From NCBI RefSeq assembly GCF_900095285.1, contig NZ_LT607734.1, forward strand, positions 558,001 to 622,000: DNA of 64,000 nucleotides. Reading direction: 5' to 3'. How positions within the stretch are numbered: position 1 is the stretch's first letter; each line of letters begins with the position of its first letter. A program made the position numbers and the translations under genes. This DNA comes from Fusobacterium gastrosuis. Lineage in GTDB: Bacteria > Fusobacteriota > Fusobacteriia > Fusobacteriales > Fusobacteriaceae. The notes below the pieces were generated by a model. It saw only the letters and a program-made list of their open reading frames with translations. It was not told where the DNA came from and did not search any database. This document shows positions 47,389-56,462 of the stretch, piece by piece.

Positions 47389-49302
47389 CTATATATCAAT
47401 ATTTTTTACATATTCAGCATGTTCTTCTATAAATTCTCTTCTAGGTTCTACCTTATCTCCCATAAGTTTATCAAATAATATATCTGCCTCTCTTGCATTA
47501 TCTATTGAAACTTTTAGAAGCATTCTTCCCATAGGATCCATTGTAGTTTCCCATAGTTGTTCAGGATTCATTTCTCCTAATCCTTTATATCTTTGAATAT
47601 TATATTTTTTATTTTCATCATTCATTTTAGATAATATTTCTTTTAATTCATTATCATTGTATGCATATATTATTTGTTTTCCCGAACTAACTTTATAAAG
47701 AGGTGGACAAGCTATATATATATTTCCAGCATAAATTAAATCTATCATATATCTATATAAGAATGTTAATATTAAGGTTCTTATATGGGCACCATCAACA
47801 TCGGCGTCTGTCATAAGAATTATCTTTCCATATCTTAATTTTGAGATATCGAATGTTTCACCTATATTAGTTCCAAAAGCTGTCACCATAGCTCTAATTT
47901 CTGAACTTTCTAAAGATTTATGTAATCCCGCTTTTTCAACATTTATTATTTTTCCTCTAAGAGGCAATATAGCTTGATTATATCTATCTCTTCCCTGCTT
48001 TGCAGAACCTCCAGCTGAATCTCCTTCAACTATGAATAATTCACATTCTTCTGGTTTTTTTGAAGAACAATCAGCTAATTTCCCAGGAAGTGATCCAACT
48101 TCAAGAGGTGATTTTCTCAAAACTGCTTCTCTTGCTCTTTGAGCTGCTTCTCTTGCTTTTTTGGAATTCAATATTTTTTCAACTATAAGTTTTGTTACAG
48201 CTGGGTTGTCTTCTAAAAATATTTTTAAACTACTTGAAACTATATTATTAACTATTCCAACAATTTCAGAGTTTCCTAATTTTCCTTTTGTTTGTCCTTC
48301 AAACTGTGGCTGTGGAACTTTAGTTGAAACTATCCCTATCAATCCTTCTCTTATGTCATTTCCCATTAATTTTCCATCTTTATCTTTAATTAATCCTTGA
48401 GCTTTTCCTACATCATTTATAACTTTTGTAAGAGCTGTTCTGAATCCTTGAACATGAGTTCCACCTTCATGAGTATTTATATTATTTACAAATGAATATA
48501 CAGTTTCATTTTGTGAAGTATTATATGTAAATGTAACTTCAACACCAACATTATCCTGTTTTCCTATTGTAAAAAATGGTTTTTCTATTATTTTTTGAGT
48601 TTCTTTTGTTATCTCTTCTAAAAAATCTAAAAGTCCTCCATCATATTTGTATACTTCTTCTTTTTTTTCTGATTTTCTTAAGTCAGATAAAACTATTGTT
48701 AAACCACTATTTAAATATGCCAATTCTTTTAATCTATTTGACAAGGTAAAGTAATTATATACAAGTGTTTCAAAAATTAAATGATCAGCTTTGAATCTTA
48801 CAGTAGTTCCATGTTCATTTGTTTCCCCAATTACTTTTACATCCTCTTCTGGTTTTCCTCTATTATATTTTTGATAATATACAGATCCATTTCTTCTAAC
48901 TTCTACTTCCGTCCATTCAGAAAGAGCATTTACTACTGAAACTCCAACACCATGTAATCCACCTGAAACAGTATAATTATCATTTTCAAATTTTCCTCCA
49001 GCATGCAGTACTGTTAAAACAATTTCTAATGCTGATTTTCCATATTTAGGATGTATGTCTGTTGGAATTCCTCTACCATTATCTATTACTTCAATAATAT
49101 TATCTGGAAGAATACTCACTTCTATCTTATCACAATGACCTGCTAACGCTTCATCAACTGAGTTATCTACTATTTCCCAAACTAAATGATGAAGACCTCT
49201 TTCAGAAGTAGTTCCAATATACATTCCCGGTCTTTTTCTAACAGCTTCTAATCCCTCTAGAACTGTTATGTTCTGTGCTTCATATTTATTATTTTCACTC
49301 AT
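47389..49302 (-). CDS. gyrB: DNA gyrase subunit B
   Basis: The 637-residue subunit binds ATP and carries the Toprim domain. The GHKL ATPase motifs are [17 protein letters not shown] and [16 protein letters not shown]. The Toprim motifs are [15 protein letters not shown] and [15 protein letters not shown]. The C-terminal [21 protein letters not shown] is typical. An ATG eight codons upstream lies before the GGAGG ribosome site, so the start at 49302 is used. Gyrase loosens DNA ahead of forks and belongs to the classical origin cluster. Confidence 0.97.
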
Positions 49303-49332
49303 TTTTTCCTCCAAATAAAAAAACATTAAAAA

Positions 49333-49605
49333 TTATTTTATATTTATATCATCAATAATAAAATCAAAAAATGAATTTATTTTTTCTAAAATTTTATTTT
49401 TATTAGTATACATATGATGTCTTATAATTGAATTTTTTACAGATATAAAAAGTTGATTTCCTCTTATATAGTTTATATTAACTTCTTCCGAAAAATTTTC
49501 AAAAATTTCAGTTTTTTTTAGTTCAATCAAAGATACTTTAAGTTGTGGGTTACTTTCTATCTCTATTTTTATTATATCTTGAATTTTATCAACTTTTATC
49601 AACAA
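49333..49605 (-). CDS. Short DciA-like (DUF721) protein
   Basis: This 90-residue protein matches the DUF721/DciA pattern: a conserved strand IRGNQLFISVKNSIIRHHMY, then NKNKILEKINSFF and the end FIIDDINIK, corresponding to the KH-like core of DciA. DciA proteins load or help the replicative helicase DnaB in bacteria without DnaC or DnaI. It overlaps the recF end by 17 bases and precedes gyrB by 30. The same place next to recF and gyrB is held by DUF721 genes in other bacteria. The identification is by pattern only. Confidence 0.7.
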   Translation of the reverse strand: MLIKVDKIQDIIKIEIESNPQLKVSLIELKKTEIFENFSEEVNINYIRGNQLFISVKNSIIRHHMYTNKNKILEKINSFFDFIIDDINIK

Positions 49606-50689
49606 AAACTCCTCCTTTTTTTATATAAAAATTTTGAGAATCTATTTTTAATTTATCAGTTGAACTAATCAAAACTTGTATATCTTTTTTGTGTAAATAT
49701 TCTAAGATAGAAGTTCTTCTTTCTTCATCAAAATAAGAAGTTATATCATCAATAATAATAATTGGATTTTCCTTTTTATTTTTCTTTACTATATCTATTT
49801 CTGAAAGTTTCAATGCAAATATTATTGATTTTTTTTCTCCTTGTGATGCATTAACTTTTACTTCATAATTATTCAATAAAAATTTAAAATCGTCTTTATG
49901 CGGCCCTACTAAAGAAAATTTATATTTCATTTCTCTAAATTTTTTTTCTATTAATTCTTTTTTTAATTCTTCCTCTATATCTTCTATTTTTAATTTAGAT
50001 AATTTATAGGAAGAATTTTCATACTTTATACTCAATTCTTGTTCTGAATTAAAAAGTTTTCTATAAAGTAAATTTAACATTATTGAAAGACTCTTAATAT
50101 ATTCTATTCTTGAATATATTATTCTCGCCCCATATTTTATAAACTCTTGTTCATAAATTTCATATTCAGGATTCTTTACTAAATTTTCTTTTAAGTACTT
50201 ATTTCTTATTTTTAAAATTCTATTATAATTTTTTAAATTTTCTAAATATCCTCTATCAATTTGAGATATTTCAATATCAAGAAAATCTCTTCTATTTTTA
50301 GGCGAACCATTTATTAATATTATATCTTCTGGTATATATGCAATTACATTTACTTTTCCATAAAAATCTGTTTGATTTATTTTTTTTTTATTAAAAAAAA
50401 ATTCCTTTTTTGAGTTTAAAATATTCTCATATCTAACTGCTATATTATTTCTTGTTATATTATCTTCATATTCTATATTTGATAATATACTATTTTCATT
50501 GTACTTTATAATCTCTGATGATTTTCTAGTCCTAAAACTAATCCCAGTCGAATTAAAATATATAGCTTCAAGAATACTTGTTTTTCCTTGTGCATTTTTA
50601 CCATAAAAAACATTTATTTTACTTGATAAATTTATAGAAGTATTTTCTAAATTTCTAAAATTAAAAAATTTTATATTTAATATTTTCAA
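49589..50689 (-). CDS. recF: DNA replication and repair protein RecF
   Basis: This 366-residue SMC-like ATPase helps load RecA at single-strand gaps and stalled forks. Walker A is YGKNAQGKTSILEAIY (about residues 29-44), the signature is NASQGEKKSIIFALKLSEI, and the Walker B region is NPIIIIDDITSYFDEER. The N-terminal LNIKFFNFRNLENTSINL is standard. It is 16 bases after yaaA and overlaps the DciA-like gene. The usual neighbour dnaN is missing. Confidence 0.95.
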   Translation of the reverse strand: MKILNIKFFNFRNLENTSINLSSKINVFYGKNAQGKTSILEAIYFNSTGISFRTRKSSEIIKYNENSILSNIEYEDNITRNNIAVRYENILNSKKEFFFNKKKINQTDFYGKVNVIAYIPEDIILINGSPKNRRDFLDIEISQIDRGYLENLKNYNRILKIRNKYLKENLVKNPEYEIYEQEFIKYGARIIYSRIEYIKSLSIMLNLLYRKLFNSEQELSIKYENSSYKLSKLKIEDIEEELKKELIEKKFREMKYKFSLVGPHKDDFKFLLNNYEVKVNASQGEKKSIIFALKLSEIDIVKKNKKENPIIIIDDITSYFDEERRTSILEYLHKKDIQVLISSTDKLKIDSQNFYIKKGGVFVDKS

Positions 50690-50705
50690 TACTTCACCTC
50701 AATTT

Positions 50706-50921
50706 TTATTCTAAAATAAATATTTTATCAAAAACTTCTATTTTATACTCAGGGTATAATTTTCTTCCCCTTCTTATTTCAATTTCCCCATTTACTTTTA
50801 CTTTTCCATCTAAAATTAAATCTTTTGCATCTGAGCCACTATCACATATACTTACCCATTTTAAAAATTGGTCAAGCTTTATGAATTCTGTAGATATTTT
50901 TATCTTTTCAATTTTTTTCAT
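50706..50921 (-). CDS. yaaA: S4-domain RNA-binding protein YaaA
   Basis: The 71-residue protein has an S4-like fold: KLDQFLKWVSICDSGSDAKDLILDGKVKVNGEIEIRRGRKLYPEYKIEV. It is the small S4 protein that lies just before recF in many Firmicutes-type origin regions. A longer reading frame begins 14 codons upstream but lacks a ribosome site; AAGGAAGTG stands before the ATG at 50921. Confidence 0.9.
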   Translation of the reverse strand: MKKIEKIKISTEFIKLDQFLKWVSICDSGSDAKDLILDGKVKVNGEIEIRRGRKLYPEYKIEVFDKIFILE

Positions 50922-50953
50922 AAAACACTTCCTTTTACAAAATTCTATTTTAT

Positions 50954-50962
50954 AGTATAACA
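50954..50962 (-). promoter_or_regulatory. Extended -10 promoter of yaaA-recF-gyrBA
   Basis: TGTTATACT (TGn plus TATACT) lies on the minus strand, 33 bases before the yaaA start. The -35 is poor. It follows the terminator of the initiator gene and could drive the yaaA to pheT series. Confidence 0.5.
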
Positions 50963-51031
50963 TAAATTAAGAAACTTTTCCTAAGTTTTTAAATTTTATT
51001 TGAAAATATATATTCATATAAACATAAAAAT

Positions 51032-51058
51032 AAAGGAGACTTAAAAAAGTCTCTCTTT
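51032..51058 (-). terminator. Terminator of the initiator gene
   Basis: AAAGAGAGACTT and AAGTCTCCTTT pair across a short loop with one mismatch and are followed by TATTTTTATG on the minus strand. The stop codon of the initiator gene lies in the stem. Confidence 0.8.
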
Positions 51059-52913
51059 ATTTTTCATATTCGTTTTTTATAATTTCTTTTATATTGTTTG
51101 TTATCATTTTATAATAAATATCTTTGGAAGTATTCTTTATCGTGTATATATCCTCTTTAGTCATGTTATTTGTTTGCATCATTATTTTTACTGCTTTTTC
51201 TTCTATTTCAAGTTTAGTTAATTCGTCAAATTTTTCTAATATATCAAATATAGTTTCTTCTTTTTTTTGAACTTGATTAATAATAACTTTTTCTTCCATT
51301 TCTATTTCATCAATATTATTTTTTATTAAAGGCTTTGTTTTTTTATTTTTGTCAGTATACACAATTCCATTTTCTTTAATTATGTTTGTTCCACCAACTT
51401 TATTTATATATCTCTTTCTAGCCTGATTAATTTGTGCTTTATCTTTTAATCCTTTACCTTTATTTACATTTTCAAATAAATTCAAATTAGGATTTCCTTT
51501 TTTAATAGTCTTCTTAATAGTTTTTAAAATACTGTTTATATAAGTAACAAGAGTTGAAGATATGTCATTATCCAAATCTAATAAAATATTTAAAACTCTT
51601 CTTAAAATTTCTTCTCCATCTTTTACATATATATCATTTATTTTATTTTCAACTCTCTTATTCCATTTAGAATATATTTTGGTATTCAATTTTATTTTTT
51701 CTATAAGTTCTTCTATGCTATCTTCATCTGCTATCTCTGCGGTTGTATCTATTTCTATTTCATCACCATTATTTAATATTTCTCTATGAATATTTTTTTC
51801 CTTAGACTTATTAATAAATTCAGATGTATGACAATCTCCATCTCTTTCTTTATTAAATATATAGTATATATAATAAGTTTCTTCATCTTTATAGTAAGTT
51901 TCTTCATAATTTTTTATATATCCCATTTCTTTTAAAACATCAAAAGCTTTTAAAATTCTTGTAAGAACTGGTTTCATTCTATTAAGTCTGTAAGTTTTAA
52001 GACCTGCCTTTGTTTCCCTGAAAGTATATTGCTCTATTTTTAAAGGAATAATTGCAGCTATTGTTCTTACATTTATTTCTCCATCAATAGCTCCATACCT
52101 TATTTTACTTATATATTTATATATTCTAGATGCAATTGGATCTTTTGTCATTATTTCTAATAAATTTTTAGTATTATATTTTATATATCTTTTAGATTTT
52201 ATTTTGTTAACTATATTCTTATCCAAATACACTTTATAAAATATTTTTTTTCCAATTTTTAACTTTTGATAAGTTAAAAGTTTAAATTCTTTATCTTCAA
52301 ATTGGTTTTCTCCAAATTTTGTATGATTTGAAATTTCAAACTGATATTGAGTATTTTTTAAATTTTTTAAAGCTTGCTCAACTTTTGAATAATAAGTTCT
52401 GTTCATTTTATTTCCTAAAAAGTTCACTATAAAATCTGAAATTTCAAATTCTATAACTGCTTCCTCTTCATCTTTTTTTCTCTTTTCAAGATACATTGAT
52501 ATTAAAAACATATATATTTTTTCTTCAAAAATAGAGGGCTGAAAAACTTTATCATTTTTATCTTTAGGGATAAGTGTACTATACATAGTCACTCCTAAAT
52601 CCTCAAACTTATATTTAAAATTTATTTTTTTATTTTGTTTTTGAGGAGTAAAAAAAGGAAAAACTATCATTTCTACTGGAATATTTATATAATTTTCTTT
52701 TAAATTAAGATAATTTCCAGTATTAGTAATTAAAATTTCTTGTACTTCTATATCAGGAACTTCATTTGAAACTATTTCTAAATTTTTTACCTTTTCAAAA
52801 TTTAAAATATCATTTGCTAAAGAACCAGTTTTAGAAATTTCAAAACTGTCTACTTCTATTTTTTCAACTTTATTTTCATTATTTTCTAAAAAATTATCAG
52901 ATTTTTTTTTCAT
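51057..52913 (-). CDS. RPA-family (plasmid-type) replication initiator at the origin locus
   Basis: This 618-residue protein matches the replication initiator protein A family known from plasmids and phages. After an acidic N-terminal segment (about 1-75), the first winged helix begins near 83 (VFPFFTPQKQNKKINFKYKF) with VIEFEISDFIVNFLG and YYSKVEQALKNLKNTQY to about 195. The second winged helix is at about 250-355 (DPIASRIYKYISKIR, VLTRILKAFDVLKEMGYIK). The C-terminal 260 residues are charged, coiled and unassigned. ATG at 52913 has an AAAGGTGG site; a longer start at 52934 lacks one. The gene stands where dnaA lies in classical origin clusters, transcribed away from the AT-rich repeats. Function as a chromosomal initiator is inference. 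Confidence 0.8.
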   Translation of the reverse strand: MKKKSDNFLENNENKVEKIEVDSFEISKTGSLANDILNFEKVKNLEIVSNEVPDIEVQEILITNTGNYLNLKENYINIPVEMIVFPFFTPQKQNKKINFKYKFEDLGVTMYSTLIPKDKNDKVFQPSIFEEKIYMFLISMYLEKRKKDEEEAVIEFEISDFIVNFLGNKMNRTYYSKVEQALKNLKNTQYQFEISNHTKFGENQFEDKEFKLLTYQKLKIGKKIFYKVYLDKNIVNKIKSKRYIKYNTKNLLEIMTKDPIASRIYKYISKIRYGAIDGEINVRTIAAIIPLKIEQYTFRETKAGLKTYRLNRMKPVLTRILKAFDVLKEMGYIKNYEETYYKDEETYYIYYIFNKERDGDCHTSEFINKSKEKNIHREILNNGDEIEIDTTAEIADEDSIEELIEKIKLNTKIYSKWNKRVENKINDIYVKDGEEILRRVLNILLDLDNDISSTLVTYINSILKTIKKTIKKGNPNLNLFENVNKGKGLKDKAQINQARKRYINKVGGTNIIKENGIVYTDKNKKTKPLIKNNIDEIEMEEKVIINQVQKKEETIFDILEKFDELTKLEIEEKAVKIMMQTNNMTKEDIYTIKNTSKDIYYKMITNNIKEIIKNEYEK

Positions 52914-52945
52914 TTTTCCACCTTTTAAAATCATAAATTAAAAAA

Positions 52946-52974
52946 ATTCTAACACAATTTATGTATATATTCAA
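52946..52974 (-). promoter_or_regulatory. Promoter of the initiator gene
   Basis: TTGAAT and TAGAAT are spaced 17 bases apart on the minus strand, with an upstream TGT before the -10. The first TGTATATATT element of the repeat region (52962 on) overlaps the spacer and -35, so the initiator may control its own gene. Confidence 0.65.
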
Positions 52975-53495
52975 TAATATTTTTTTCTTTTTTATTTCAT
53001 TAAAATTCATATAGTTTTTTCATTTTCATATTAAAAAGTGTTCAAAATAAATATTTTTTATTTGTATATGATAAATAATAAGCTTCTATATTTTTTCTTT
53101 ATTGAATTTCAAATAAAATATTTTATTATTTTTTTTATTTAATGAAAATTCTAGCTTTTTTATATGTACATAAATAAAAATATTTTTTTCTTCTTTTAAA
53201 TCAAAATAAAAAAATAAACTTAAGAAAAAATTTAAGAAAATTAATATATTTTAAATTTGTATATGACTAAAAATAAAATTTAATTTTAAAATTTATTCTA
53301 TTTAAAATAAAAAAATAAAACATATTAAAAAAAATATAGAATATTTTTAATTTAAAAATATGTATACTAACAAAAATAGTTAATATTTAATTAAATACTT
53401 TTTTCTATTTATTTTTAATAAATTTTTAATTATTAATTTTTATTAAAAATCACTACATTAAACTTAATATACTAAATAAACATTTACAGAAATTA
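52961..53495. repeat. Origin-region tandem repeat, copy A
   Basis: This is the first copy of the duplicated unit. TGTATAT/TGTACAT/TGTATAC elements begin at 52962, 53063, 53165, 53258 and 53361, all in the same direction and followed by AATAAAAAT-like runs. The conserved CTTAAG(A)nTTTAAG stretch starts at 53219. The remaining part up to 53640 is AT-rich filler with little match to copy B. Confidence 0.8.
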
Positions 53496-53640
53496 TTCTA
53501 AAATATTTTTCTATAAAAAATTGTATTATAAAATAATATTTAAAAATAAAAATTACATAATCAATCATAAAAAAATATTTTTAATAATAATTAAAGCAAA
53601 TATAGCAAAATTTATAAAATATTTTAATTAACTTTAAAAT

Positions 53641-54176
53641 ATGTATATATTCAATAATATTTTCATATTTTTTCTTCCGTTGAAATCTCTATATTTTTTC
53701 TTTATTAATAAAAAAAGAGATTTAAAATAAACAATTTATTATTTGTATATAATAAATAATAAACTTCTATATTTTTTACTTATTGAATTTAAAGTAAAAT
53801 ATTTCACCATTTTTTTTTACTTAATGAAAATATTAATTTTTTATATGTACATAGATAAAAATATTTTTTTCTTTTTTTAAATCAAAATAAAAAAAATAAA
53901 CTTAAGAAAAAATTTAAGAAAATTAATGTATTTTAATTTGTATATAATTAAAAATAAATTTTAACTTTAAAATTCATTTTAATTTTAATAAAAAAAATAT
54001 AGATTACTTTAAAAAATATTTTAAATTATTAATCTAAAAATATGTATATAAAGAAAAATAAAAATTTTAAATTTTTATATTTTTTATTATTAATTTTAAA
54101 GAGTTTTTTTATTATTAACTTTTATTAAAAATCTATACATTATACTAATATACTAAATAAACAATTACAGATAAAA
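53641..54176. repeat. Origin-region tandem repeat, copy B
   Basis: This second copy matches copy A at offsets of 680-682 bases. The elements begin at 53642, 53744, 53846, 53939 and 54042. The CTTAAG stretch recurs at 53901, and AATATACTAAATAAACA, found at 53466 in copy A, recurs at 54147. Copies differ by scattered substitutions and small indels, so the duplication is not recent or is free to drift between the elements. Confidence 0.8.
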
Positions 54177-54241
54177 TTTTTCTTTAACTTTTCTACTATA
54201 AATATTATGAAGTGAAATAAATATAGCTAAGAAATAAAAAC

Positions 54242-54270
54242 TTGACAAATAAAAAAAAAAAATGTAAACT
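54242..54270 (+). promoter_or_regulatory. Promoter of rpmH
   Basis: TTGACA and TAAACT are separated by 17 bases, ahead of the GGAGG site and rpmH start. The -10 matches only four of six bases. Confidence 0.6.
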
Positions 54271-54307
54271 TATAAACTGAATATAGCAATCTTTTGGAGG
54301 TGAAAAA

Positions 54308-54442
54308 ATGAAAAGAACATTCCAACCAAATCAAAGAAAAAGAAAAAAAGATCATGGGTTTAGATCAAGAATGGCAACAAAAAACGGAAGAAAAGTTTTA
54401 AAAAGAAGAAGAGTAAAAGGAAGAGCTAAATTATCTGCATAA
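54308..54442 (+). CDS. rpmH: 50S ribosomal protein L34
   Basis: This 44-residue basic protein begins [19 protein letters not shown] and ends in [16 protein letters not shown], the unmistakable L34 sequence. GGAGG lies six bases before the ATG. It is the first gene to the right of the AT-rich region, the usual place of rpmH beside oriC, and is followed by its own terminator-like hairpin before rnpA. Confidence 0.98.
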
Positions 54443-54445
54443 AAC

Positions 54446-54473
54446 CCGGTGAATAAAAAACACCGGTTTTTTT
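54446..54473 (+). terminator. Terminator-like hairpin between rpmH and rnpA
   Basis: CCGGTG and CACCGG pair with a 9-base loop, followed by seven T. It would reduce read-through so that L34 is made in excess over RnpA. Confidence 0.8.
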
Positions 54474-54498
54474 ACCTTTTCAATTTTTAGGAGAAAAA

Positions 54499-54843
54499 AT
54501 GAATACCTTAAAAAAAAATAGAGAGTTTCAAAATATATATAACTTAGGAAAAAAATGTTTTGGCAATTACTCTCTTATTTTTTTTAATAAAAATAATTTA
54601 GAAAATAGTAGATTTGGTTTTGTAGCCAGTAAAAAAACTGGTAAAGCTCATTGTAGAAATAGAATAAAAAGATTATTTAGAGAATATATAAGATTAAATT
54701 TAGAAAATTTTAATGATAATTATGATATTATTTTAGTTGGAAAAAAAAATCTAGGGGACAATATAGATATAATTAAATATATAGATATAGAAAAGGATCT
54801 TAATAAAATTTTTAAAATAGCTAAAATCTTAAAAGGAAAATAA
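54499..54843 (+). CDS. rnpA: Ribonuclease P protein component
   Basis: This 114-residue basic protein supports the RNA subunit in tRNA 5' maturation. The family RNR motif is in KKTGKAHCRNRIKRLFREYIR (about residues 50-70), preceded by FGFVASKK. The length is normal. An AGGAG site lies eight bases before the start. It is followed by yidD after ten bases. Confidence 0.93.
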   Translation: MNTLKKNREFQNIYNLGKKCFGNYSLIFFNKNNLENSRFGFVASKKTGKAHCRNRIKRLFREYIRLNLENFNDNYDIILVGKKNLGDNIDIIKYIDIEKDLNKIFKIAKILKGK

Positions 54844-54853
54844 AGGAAAATAG

Positions 54854-55078
54854 ATGAGATTTATCTTATTAAATGTAATAAAAATTTATCAAAAATTTAT
54901 ATCCCCTATTTTCCCAGGAAAATGTAGATTTTATCCTACATGTTCAGCTTATACTTATCAAGCAATAGAAGAATATGGATGTATAAAAGGTTTATATTTA
55001 GGAATAAAAAGAATTTTAAAATGTCATCCATTTAATGAAGGAGGATATGATCCTCTACCTAAAAAAAATCAAAAGTAA
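54854..55078 (+). CDS. yidD: Membrane protein insertion efficiency factor YidD
   Basis: The 74-residue protein has the conserved core [19 protein letters not shown], with cysteines at about 24, 30 and 43, and [14 protein letters not shown] near the end. The N-terminal hydrophobic helix sits at the membrane. YidD assists YidC, whose gene follows 12 bases downstream. Confidence 0.95.
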
Positions 55079-55090
55079 TTAGGAGGCTAA

Positions 55091-55708
55091 ATGAAATATA
55101 TTTATGGACTGTTAGTAAGTTTTATAGAATTTTTATTAAAATCAGTAGACAATGTTGTGGGAAATTTTGGTTTATCAATAATTATAGTAACAATAATAAT
55201 AAAAATATTATTACTTCCTCTTACAATAAAACAAGATAAATCTATGAAAGCAATGAAAAAGCTTCAACCACAGTTAGATGAAATAAAAAAGAAATATGCA
55301 AATGATAAACAAATGTTAAATATAAAAACAATGGAACTTTACAAAGAAAATAAAGTTAATCCTGCTGGTGGATGTTTACCAATACTTATTCAATTACCAA
55401 TTTTATGGGCTTTATTTGGAGTTTTAAGAGGTGGAATAGTTCCAGTTGATTCAACTTTTTTATGGATGAAGCTTGCAGAGCCTGATCAATTTTATATTTT
55501 ACCATTACTAAATGGTGCAATATCTTTTGTACAACAGAAATTAATGGGAACTTCAGATAATCCACAAATGAAAAATATGATGTATATGTTCCCAATAATG
55601 ATGATTTTTATTTCATATAAAATGCCAGCTGGTCTTCAAATTTATTGGTTAACATCAAGTTTAGCAGCTGTTGTTCAACAATATTTTATAATGAAAAAAG
55701 GAGCTTAA
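55091..55708 (+). CDS. yidC: Membrane protein insertase YidC (short Oxa1 type)
   Basis: The 205-residue protein covers the conserved five-helix Oxa1/YidC core: LSIIIVTIIIKILLLPLTIKQDKSMKAM, the cytoplasmic hairpin KLQPQLDEIKKKYAND, NPAGGCLPILIQLPILWALF and the C-terminal helices with QIYWLTSSLAAVVQQY. It inserts membrane proteins with or without Sec. The large periplasmic P1 domain seen in most outer-membrane bacteria is missing, so the form resembles that of Firmicutes. The stop is one base from the jag start. Confidence 0.93.
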   Translation: MKYIYGLLVSFIEFLLKSVDNVVGNFGLSIIIVTIIIKILLLPLTIKQDKSMKAMKKLQPQLDEIKKKYANDKQMLNIKTMELYKENKVNPAGGCLPILIQLPILWALFGVLRGGIVPVDSTFLWMKLAEPDQFYILPLLNGAISFVQQKLMGTSDNPQMKNMMYMFPIMMIFISYKMPAGLQIYWLTSSLAAVVQQYFIMKKGA

Positions 55709-55709
55709 T

Positions 55710-56462
55710 ATGGATAAAACAATAGAAATAAAAGCTATTGATAAAGAAAAAGCTTTAGAAAGAGCGTTAAAAGTATTAGGAATTTCTTTAACAGATAATG
55801 AAGAAGTAGAAATAATAGAAAAAATAAGCCCTAAGAAAAAATTATTTGGTTTATTAGGAACAGAGTCAGGGCTTTATGAAATATGTATAAAATCAAAAAT
55901 AAAAAATGAAGAAAAAAAAGCAGAAAAAGTTGAAAAGAAGAATGTAAATACAATTGAAAATTTTTCTAAAGAAAATACAAGAAAAGAAGAAAAATTAGAA
56001 ATAAAAAAAGATGTTAAAGAAAAAGATGAAAAAGAAATTGAAATAATAGAAAAAACAAAAATTCTTCTTGAAAAAATGAGTTTAAATTTTGAAATTGAAA
56101 TAAAAAAATTGAAAGAAAAATCTTATGTTGTTAACTTAATAGGTGAAGATAATGCAATTATAATAGGACAAAAAGGTAAAACATTGAATTCTTTTGAATA
56201 CTTATTGAACTCATTAGTAAAAGATTGTAGAATTGAAGTTGATGTTGAAAAATTTAAAGAAAAAAGAAATGAAACTTTAAGGGCTCTAGCTAAAAAAATG
56301 GCAGAAAAAGTATTAAAAACAAATAAAACAGTAAGACTTAATGCTATGCCGCCTAGAGAAAGAAAAATAATTCATGAAGTAGTGAATAAATATCCTAATT
56401 TAGATACTTATAGTGAAGGTAGAGATCCTAAGAGATATATAGTTATAAAGAAAAAGAAATAA
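55710..56462 (+). CDS. jag: RNA-binding protein KhpB/Jag
   Basis: The 250-residue protein has a Jag_N domain (about 4-50, with KKLFGLLG), a very charged Lys/Glu linker (65-112), a KH domain (113-180) with [20 protein letters not shown], and an R3H domain (184-249) with [13 protein letters not shown]. Together with KhpA it binds RNA and affects cell shape in other bacteria. It lies between yidC and mnmE as in many origin clusters. Confidence 0.93.

What the first reader, a model, noticed from the sequence alone, without database searches (positions are those of the whole stretch)
51057..54307. Plasmid-type initiator in the place of dnaA at an oriC-like locus
The order pheT-pheS-gyrA-gyrB-recF-yaaA / AT-rich gap / rpmH-rnpA-yidD-yidC-jag-mnmE-mnmG is that of a classical bacterial origin, where dnaA and dnaN would stand. 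The sequence instead shows a 618-residue protein with two winged helices of the RPA initiator type, transcribed away from a repeated AT-rich region. I infer that the chromosome may be replicated from this site by a captured Rep protein, alone or together with DnaA encoded elsewhere. No plasmid partner genes (par, mob) are near, so simple plasmid integration looks old.
Basis: partly seen in the sequence, partly recalled or inferred. Interest (0 to 1): 0.92.

Follow-up and report, generated by a model that had tools for sequence, protein, structure and literature searches.

The report
Plasmid initiator replaces DnaA at oriC
In 61 examined genomes of one bacterial family (that of Fusobacterium) no gene for DnaA, the near-universal starter of chromosome copying, was detected, and in 56 of them a full-length plasmid-type initiator gene was found, nearly always beside the gene next to which related families keep dnaA, where it likely starts copying of the main chromosome from the repeats beside it.

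Summary
The 618-residue protein (51057-52913, minus) is a plasmid-type RPA initiator: Pfam PF10134 above its cut-off, and a predicted double winged helix whose best solved matches are RctB (Vibrio chromosome 2), RepE and Pi. It diverges from rpmH across a 10% G+C gap with ten same-strand copies of TGTAYANNNNNAWWAATA. DnaA's C-terminal domain was detected in 0 of 61 genomes of the window's family and in 36 of 37 others of the phylum; the RPA protein in 59 of 61 and 1 of 37. In sister families dnaA occupies the same slot, followed by yaaA-recF. The repeat recurs in 29 of 29 gaps examined (146 against 1 by strand, 0.17 expected) and clusters around the origin in 5 of 5 genomes. GC skew changes sign here and at the locus in three other genomes. 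Related genes lie on Haliovirga and Ilyobacter plasmids. Best reading: a captured plasmid Rep replaced DnaA in the family's ancestor and likely initiates the main chromosome. Binding and initiation are untested. Databases already name it 'replication initiator protein A'; no passage I saw says that DnaA is missing here.

The parts
51057..52913 (-). RPA-type initiator gene, 618 aa from the ATG behind GGTGG (625 aa from an upstream ATG at 52934)
   Evidence: predicted double winged helix in residues ~45-360
52914..54307 (.). divergent RPA-rpmH gap, 10% G+C, putative replication origin; GC skew changes sign here
52962..52979 (+). iteron 1, TGTATATATTCAATAATA; overlaps a promoter-like site of the initiator gene
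   Evidence: promoter scan as a whole at chance level
53063..53080 (+). iteron 2
53165..53182 (+). iteron 3
53258..53275 (+). iteron 4
53361..53378 (+). iteron 5
53642..53659 (+). iteron 6 (duplicate of 1)
53744..53761 (+). iteron 7 (duplicate of 2)
53846..53863 (+). iteron 8 (duplicate of 3)
53939..53956 (+). iteron 9 (duplicate of 4)
54043..54060 (+). iteron 10 (duplicate of 5)
52960..54178 (.). two ~540-bp arms of an imperfect tandem duplication, offset 680-682 bp, each carrying five iterons
   Evidence: families D1-D5
54308..54442 (+). rpmH, divergent neighbour of the initiator in the family and of dnaA in sister families
50706..50963 (-). yaaA (S4 domain), follows RPA here and dnaA in sister families
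49589..50689 (-). recF
49333..49605 (-). DciA-like ORF, candidate DnaB helicase operator
   Evidence: PF05258, E 9e-5, 23.1 bits, just below its cut-off of 24
51035..51054 (.). bidirectional terminator-like hairpin behind the initiator gene

Best explanation
The 618-residue protein is a plasmid-type RPA initiator by profile and predicted fold, it stands where sister families keep dnaA, and it likely starts replication of the main chromosome in place of DnaA. Proposed mechanism: RPA monomers would bind the same-strand iterons (TGTAYA-N4-(C/T)-AWWAATA) through their two winged helices, from one face of the helix (recurrent spacings near 93, 104 and 116 bp, about 9, 10 and 11 turns), and open the 10% G+C DNA of the gap; DnaB would be loaded with help of DciA (gene next to recF); the iteron over a promoter-like site of the rep gene would give autorepression, and the extra sites within about 50 kb of the origin would titrate or handcuff the initiator. 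Inferred history: a plasmid rep gene of the type now on Haliovirga and Ilyobacter plasmids replaced dnaA in the ancestor of Fusobacteriaceae. Shown here: profile match, predicted fold, position, DnaA not detected, iteron conservation, skew. Inferred: binding, unwinding, helicase loading, autorepression, titration, sole-initiator role.
Against: No experiment. Pfam RPA is met at E<=0.1 by only 18 of 29 members of A1, so membership by profile is marginal. No iteron has been shown to bind this protein; ~102-bp spacing is far wider than the ~20 bp usual for plasmid iterons (recalled). PDB sequence searches found no initiator; the fold evidence rests on a predicted model (pLDDT 78.5, pTM 0.76), Foldseek TM-scores are only 0.37-0.46 over the query, and a first full-length model was poor (pLDDT 58). 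recF sits directly behind RPA in only 20 of 56 genomes. 5 of 61 family genomes lack a full-length chromosomal copy; G060 (76% complete) shows another gene upstream of yaaA and in G051 the stretch upstream of yaaA is also not RPA. Skew is not a clean two-arm pattern in every genome: in G038 four samples from 2.03-2.43 Mb are positive against it, with smaller exceptions in G025, G037 and the own genome. Skew shows where forks start, not which protein starts them.
Confidence: 0.87

Rival explanations
1. The protein is only a remnant of an old plasmid integration or a regulator; the chromosome is started at the same gap by an unrecognised mechanism without DnaA (for example PriA/recombination-dependent starts).
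For: No binding or genetic data; dnaA-lacking free-living cyanobacteria and symbionts are reported (PMC7198777, passages).
Against: One gene kept across 14 genera, beside rpmH in 52 of 56, with long invariant stretches and a conserved same-strand iteron array absent from the sister origins examined, is not what a remnant would show. The own genome's skew points to one main origin here.
Confidence: 0.06
2. RPA works together with a strongly diverged DnaA that profile searches miss.
For: Many iteron plasmids also need DnaA (PMC4980987, passages).
Against: Domain IV profile finds 0 of 61 while finding 36 of 37 outside the family; full-length DnaA profile gives at most 36.9 bits, all partial AAA+ matches; the one PF00308 hit of the own genome looks like a phage DnaC-type loader; no exact DnaA box in 29 of 29 gaps, boxes with one mismatch in 5 of 29.
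Confidence: 0.05
3. The TGTAYA repeats belong to another protein (nucleoid, segregation or partition factor, parS-like), not to the initiator. This can be true alongside an RPA-driven origin.
For: Sites also scatter through genes within about 50 kb on both sides of the origin, as segregation sites do.
Against: The densest, same-strand array is directly upstream of the rep gene, the place of iterons in rep-iteron plasmids; three related plasmid rep genes carry their own, different repeats there; in Ilyobacter 37 of 37 sites are on the chromosome and none on its two RPA plasmids. RctB also binds sites far from ori2 (PMC6090056, passage).
Confidence: 0.12
4. Assembly or annotation artefact, or a plasmid mistaken for the chromosome.
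For: One public record of an F. vincentii chromosome is labelled a plasmid.
Against: The gene lies next to rpmH, rnpA or recF in many separate assemblies, among them single contigs of 1.7-4 Mb.
Confidence: 0.01

Closest known systems
RctB/ori2 of Vibrio cholerae chromosome 2 (and other iteron chromids)
   Same: Double winged-helix initiator (best fold match); origin with initiator iterons; further initiator sites at a distance that titrate (literature passages)
   Different: RctB runs a secondary chromosome in a cell whose main chromosome uses DnaA; here the gene sits at the main chromosome's origin locus and no DnaA was detected. Sequence searches of the PDB did not return RctB.
Iteron-plasmid Reps: RepE (F), Pi (R6K), RepA (pPS10), TrfA (RK2)
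   Same: Two winged helices in the same order by prediction, gene beside direct repeats and AT-rich DNA; one relative touches Pfam TrfA weakly (E 0.0058)
   Different: Longer protein with further C-terminal parts; repeats mostly 93-116 bp apart in the window; no DnaA detected in the cell
RPA initiators of Fusobacteriota plasmids (Haliovirga pHIC, Ilyobacter pILYOP01/02)
   Same: Homologous (about 31-41% identity), with repeats upstream; pHIC and pILYOP02 have ParA next to rep
   Different: Plasmid-borne, each with its own repeat sequence; the likely Haliovirga genome G062 keeps DnaA on its chromosome
DnaA/oriC of sister Fusobacteriota families
   Same: Same place: divergent from rpmH, followed by yaaA-recF
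   Different: AAA+ initiator and DnaA boxes instead of RPA and iterons; no significant similarity between the proteins
DnaA-free cyanobacteria and symbionts
   Same: No dnaA
   Different: The dnaA-lacking free-living cyanobacteria studied in PMC7198777 replicate from multiple origins; here a candidate substitute initiator and one main skew origin are present

Membership tests
RPA, replication initiator protein A (Pfam PF10134) | Profile match over the curated cut-off | tested here: met
   32.1 bits against 27; but only 18 of 29 relatives match at E<=0.1
Double winged-helix iteron Rep initiators (RepE/Pi/RctB type) | WH1-WH2 fold in this order | tested here: met
Double winged-helix iteron Rep initiators (RepE/Pi/RctB type) | Array of same-strand direct repeats beside the rep gene | tested here: met
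   10 in the window; 29 of 29 gaps examined, 146 against 1
Double winged-helix iteron Rep initiators (RepE/Pi/RctB type) | Binding to iterons and strand opening | not testable with these tools
   needs biochemistry
DnaA | AAA+ domain III and helix-turn-helix domain IV (PF00308, PF08299) | tested here: not met
   Only RPA listed by Pfam at E<=10; no significant alignment to a sister DnaA
DnaA-dependent oriC | Cluster of DnaA boxes | tested here: not met
   0 with up to 1 mismatch in the window gap; family gaps: no exact box in 29 of 29, boxes with one mismatch in 5 of 29, 1-3 each
Chromosomal origin (of either type) | GC-skew sign change at the locus | tested here: met
   4 of 4 genomes sampled, with local exceptions elsewhere
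Chromosomal origin (of either type) | Copy-number peak in growing cells | not testable with these tools
   no reads available
Chromid or secondary chromosome | Separate replicon beside a DnaA-run chromosome | tested here: not met
   Single 1.8-Mb contig with rpmH and gyrase genes; no DnaA detected

The most novel reading that the evidence does not exclude
An entire bacterial family has exchanged the universal initiator: a plasmid took over oriC. In Fusobacteriaceae a captured iteron-Rep displaced DnaA gene-for-gene, is the only initiator of the main chromosome, and evolved a chromosome-scale control of its own, an 18-bp iteron set phased by helical turns at the origin and sown over the surrounding ~100 kb as a titration or handcuffing system in place of DnaA-ATP control.
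Probability: 0.72. Interest if true: 0.95.

Novelty: new variant of a known kind. Interest (0 to 1): 0.9.

Why it matters
DnaA is treated as the universal bacterial initiator; a 2020 paper says that outside cyanobacteria no free-living species without dnaA had been reported (PMC7198777, passages). Here a whole family (marine Ilyobacter, oral Fusobacterium and others) appears to have replaced it by a plasmid-type initiator while keeping one main skew origin. [quoted passage not shown] nucleatum origin in 2007 (PMC1924603, passage), and means that oriC predictors based on DnaA boxes, and drugs aimed at DnaA, would miss these bacteria.

Tried and rejected
Rejected: a hidden DnaA; remnant of integration; DnaA boxes as the gap's repeats; RNA elements near the locus (no Rfam family at gathering score in 49000-56000). 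The first full-length fold was too poor to search with. The promoter scan is at chance level (35 against 37 expected), so the promoter over iteron 1 is only suggestive. Four iteron-like matches at 523.7-527.2 kb lie among genes that read like pilus/secretion genes and were not pursued. Par and mob genes were not searched for.

Choices that shape the counts. The iteron pattern was found in the window (position 11 left free so that all ten window sites match) and then applied unchanged to 28 other gaps, after the anchor TGTAYA alone had been counted and aligned in the same gaps; the window's ten sites are not independent evidence. Of the 56 full-length chromosomal loci 28 gaps, plus one named F. 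vincentii record, were used; the others were not held with rpmH in the locus, or (L055) nearly identical to one used. Searches use a stricter pattern (C or T at that position) for four genomes and the wider one for the own genome. Reversed control patterns gave 8 matches in the own genome and 0 (G037), 7 (G038), 1 (G041) and 11 (G028) in the others, so the total for G038 (12) is little above control; their positions are not listed, so clustering of controls was not tested. The sister gaps of three of seven genomes are cut by contig ends.

Literature: ten searches. Seen as passages only: PMC1924603, PMC535925, PMC13342612, PMC5109545, PMC4070872, PMC10782964, PMC11853086, PMC11380691, PMC6090056, PMC4980987, PMC5333043; passages, abstract and outline: PMC7198777; abstract and outline only: PMC11711613. 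No passage or listing I saw states that Fusobacteriaceae lack DnaA; only open-licence papers are held, so it may be in print elsewhere.
Full report
What was checked. The window is bases 558001-622000 of a 1,816,688-bp single-contig genome. The finding's ORF, its neighbours and the AT-rich gap are as described. The protein meets Pfam RPA (PF10134) above its cut-off; it is the only RPA hit in the genome at E<=10.

DnaA not detected. Bac_DnaA_C (PF08299) is found in 0 of 61 genomes of the window's family and in 36 of 37 other genomes of the phylum; the one miss, G086, is 82% complete. In the own genome nothing reaches E 10. A profile of eight sister DnaAs matches in 20 of 61 family genomes, but with at most 36.9 bits and only short pieces, none reaching the C-terminal domain. 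The single weak PF00308 hit of the own genome is a 272-aa protein that also matches AAA and IstB and looks like a phage DnaC-type loader.

Replacement in place. The window protein has relatives in 59 of 61 family genomes and in 1 of 37 others. That one, G062, is likely Haliovirga abyssi (2.43-Mb first contig plus a copy at the very start of a second contig, like the 297,551-bp plasmid pHIC, where the gene stands next to parA-parB); it has DnaA on its first contig. 56 of 61 family genomes have a full-length chromosomal copy; 49 are divergent from rpmH within 3 kb, 3 more across a contig start, 4 have rpmH on another contig; recF follows directly in 20 of 56. The five without: G039 and G045 end just past yaaA, G051 and G056 have pieces at contig ends (G051's stretch upstream of yaaA is not RPA), G060 (76% complete) has only a 34%-identical copy and another gene upstream of yaaA. 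In sister families dnaA is directly followed by yaaA in 7 of 8 held loci, with recF in 6 of 8, and is divergent from rpmH in the 4 of 7 genomes where both are held, once across a contig start. So RPA stands in dnaA's own slot. dnaN-like genes lie at 247 kb and near the contig ends in the own genome; queries with them found no dnaN in seven sister stretches or in the window.

Iterons. The window gap has ten same-strand sites in two sets of five (spacings 101, 102, 93, 103 and 102, 102, 93, 104), the second set being the 681-bp duplicate. The pattern TGTAYANNNNNAWWAATA occurs in 29 of 29 gaps examined (28 genomes and the F. vincentii record), 2-10 per gap, 146 on the strand that reads towards rpmH, 1 on the other, 0.17 expected on the plus strand; spacings near 93, 104 and 116 bp recur, though others (30, 56, 70 and 124 to 1961 bp) occur too. 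Aligned sites add information at positions 10-17 beyond the TGTAYA anchor, consensus TATGTATATNNN(C/T)AATAATA. Seven sister-family dnaA gaps have 0 on that strand and 1 on the other, and 6 of 7 carry 1-14 DnaA boxes with up to one mismatch (0.1-0.5 expected). Plasmid relatives carry their own repeats upstream of rep: ATTTTAGAAA (pHIC), TTTATCATCC (pILYOP01), CTTGCGGAGAAT (pILYOP02).

Genome-wide sites. Outside the gap, sites cluster around the origin in 5 of 5 genomes: within 50 kb 14 of 30 (G028), 4 of 6 (G037), 4 of 9 (G038), 19 of 31 (G041) and, with the wider pattern, 7 of 18 in the own genome, against 0.8, 0.4, 0.3, 1.5 and 1.0 expected. In G041, which is Ilyobacter polytropus by the lengths of its plasmids, 37 of 37 sites are on the chromosome and none on the two RPA plasmids. 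Reversed control patterns gave 0-11 matches per genome; their places are not listed.

Origin position. In the own genome seven 20-kb samples before the locus and three window pieces up to 611 kb are all negative; the piece after 612.3 kb and 9 of 10 samples from 630 kb to 1.46 Mb are positive (990 kb: -0.089); the last three, from 1.53 Mb, are negative (one only -0.028). The window itself has local stretches against the trend (19-24 kb, 60-63 kb). G038, G025 and G037 change from negative to positive at their RPA gene; exceptions elsewhere are four positive samples at 2.03-2.43 Mb in G038, two in G025 at 0.35-0.53 Mb and one at 1.75 Mb, and a mixed stretch at 0.81-1.1 Mb in G037. The own contig repeats about 30 kb at its ends (99.9% identical, one 1.7-kb length difference), so the circle is about 1.785 Mb and the antipode of the gap is near 1.504 Mb, within the mixed-skew stretch 1.48-1.52 Mb.

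History. In a tree of 61 proteins the 35 chromosomal ones form one clade (100/100); genera g1, g2, g3, g5, g6 and g8 group, g4 falls into two groups under an unresolved fork; nearest outside is a group with the second, not rpmH-linked copy of G040 and database proteins, then plasmid proteins (several long branches are flagged, so deeper order is unsure). This fits one capture in the family's ancestor and vertical descent since (inference).

Known or new. Public names for these proteins are mixed: 'replication initiator protein A' at NCBI, 'chromosomal replication initiator' (DnaA) for some relatives in UniRef and NCBI, also for the plasmid-borne Haliovirga protein. A 2007 genome paper placed the F. 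[quoted passage not shown] My ten literature searches showed no statement that the family lacks DnaA or uses a Rep. Hence a known protein kind in a new role: a new variant of a known kind.

Noticed in passing
G000 C1:1-29901 and 1785063-1816688: The two ends of the single contig repeat each other at 99.9% with one ~1.7-kb length difference: an unclosed circle, true size about 1.785 Mb; a dnaN-like gene is thereby counted twice.
   Followed up: yes
window 48866, 49395, 51344 (minus) and 55884, 59293, 61873 (plus): Iteron-like sites flanking the origin, minus-strand to the left and plus-strand to the right. Background in samples varied: 1 in 400 kb (own genome), 0 in 200 kb (G038), 8 in 200 kb (G025), 6 in 200 kb (G037), samples near the origins included.
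   Followed up: partly
L158 4745-5155 (genome G040): A second array of five iteron-like sites ~102 bp apart on the far side of the initiator gene, between it and recF.
   Followed up: no
NZ_CP084075.1 (L062): A 2.1-Mb F. vincentii replicon with rpmH, rnpA, RPA, yaaA and recF at its origin locus, evidently the chromosome, is deposited as plasmid pSB055A and sits in the plasmid collection.
   Followed up: yes
G000 C1:247095 and C1:8535: Two different beta-clamp (dnaN-like) genes, far from the origin.
   Followed up: no
gaps of L034 (~697), L040 (~581), L058 (~519), L154 (~2748): A conserved TTGGTC or TCTGTC followed by TGTACAT and an A/C-rich tail near rpmH, unlike the iterons; perhaps the rpmH promoter or a special origin site.
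   Followed up: no
G009 C6:12155-13737: A decayed RPA copy with many stops near a second intact RPA-rpmH pair (C6:16209-17459) that scores exactly like the chromosomal one on C4: duplicated origin region or contig redundancy.
   Followed up: no
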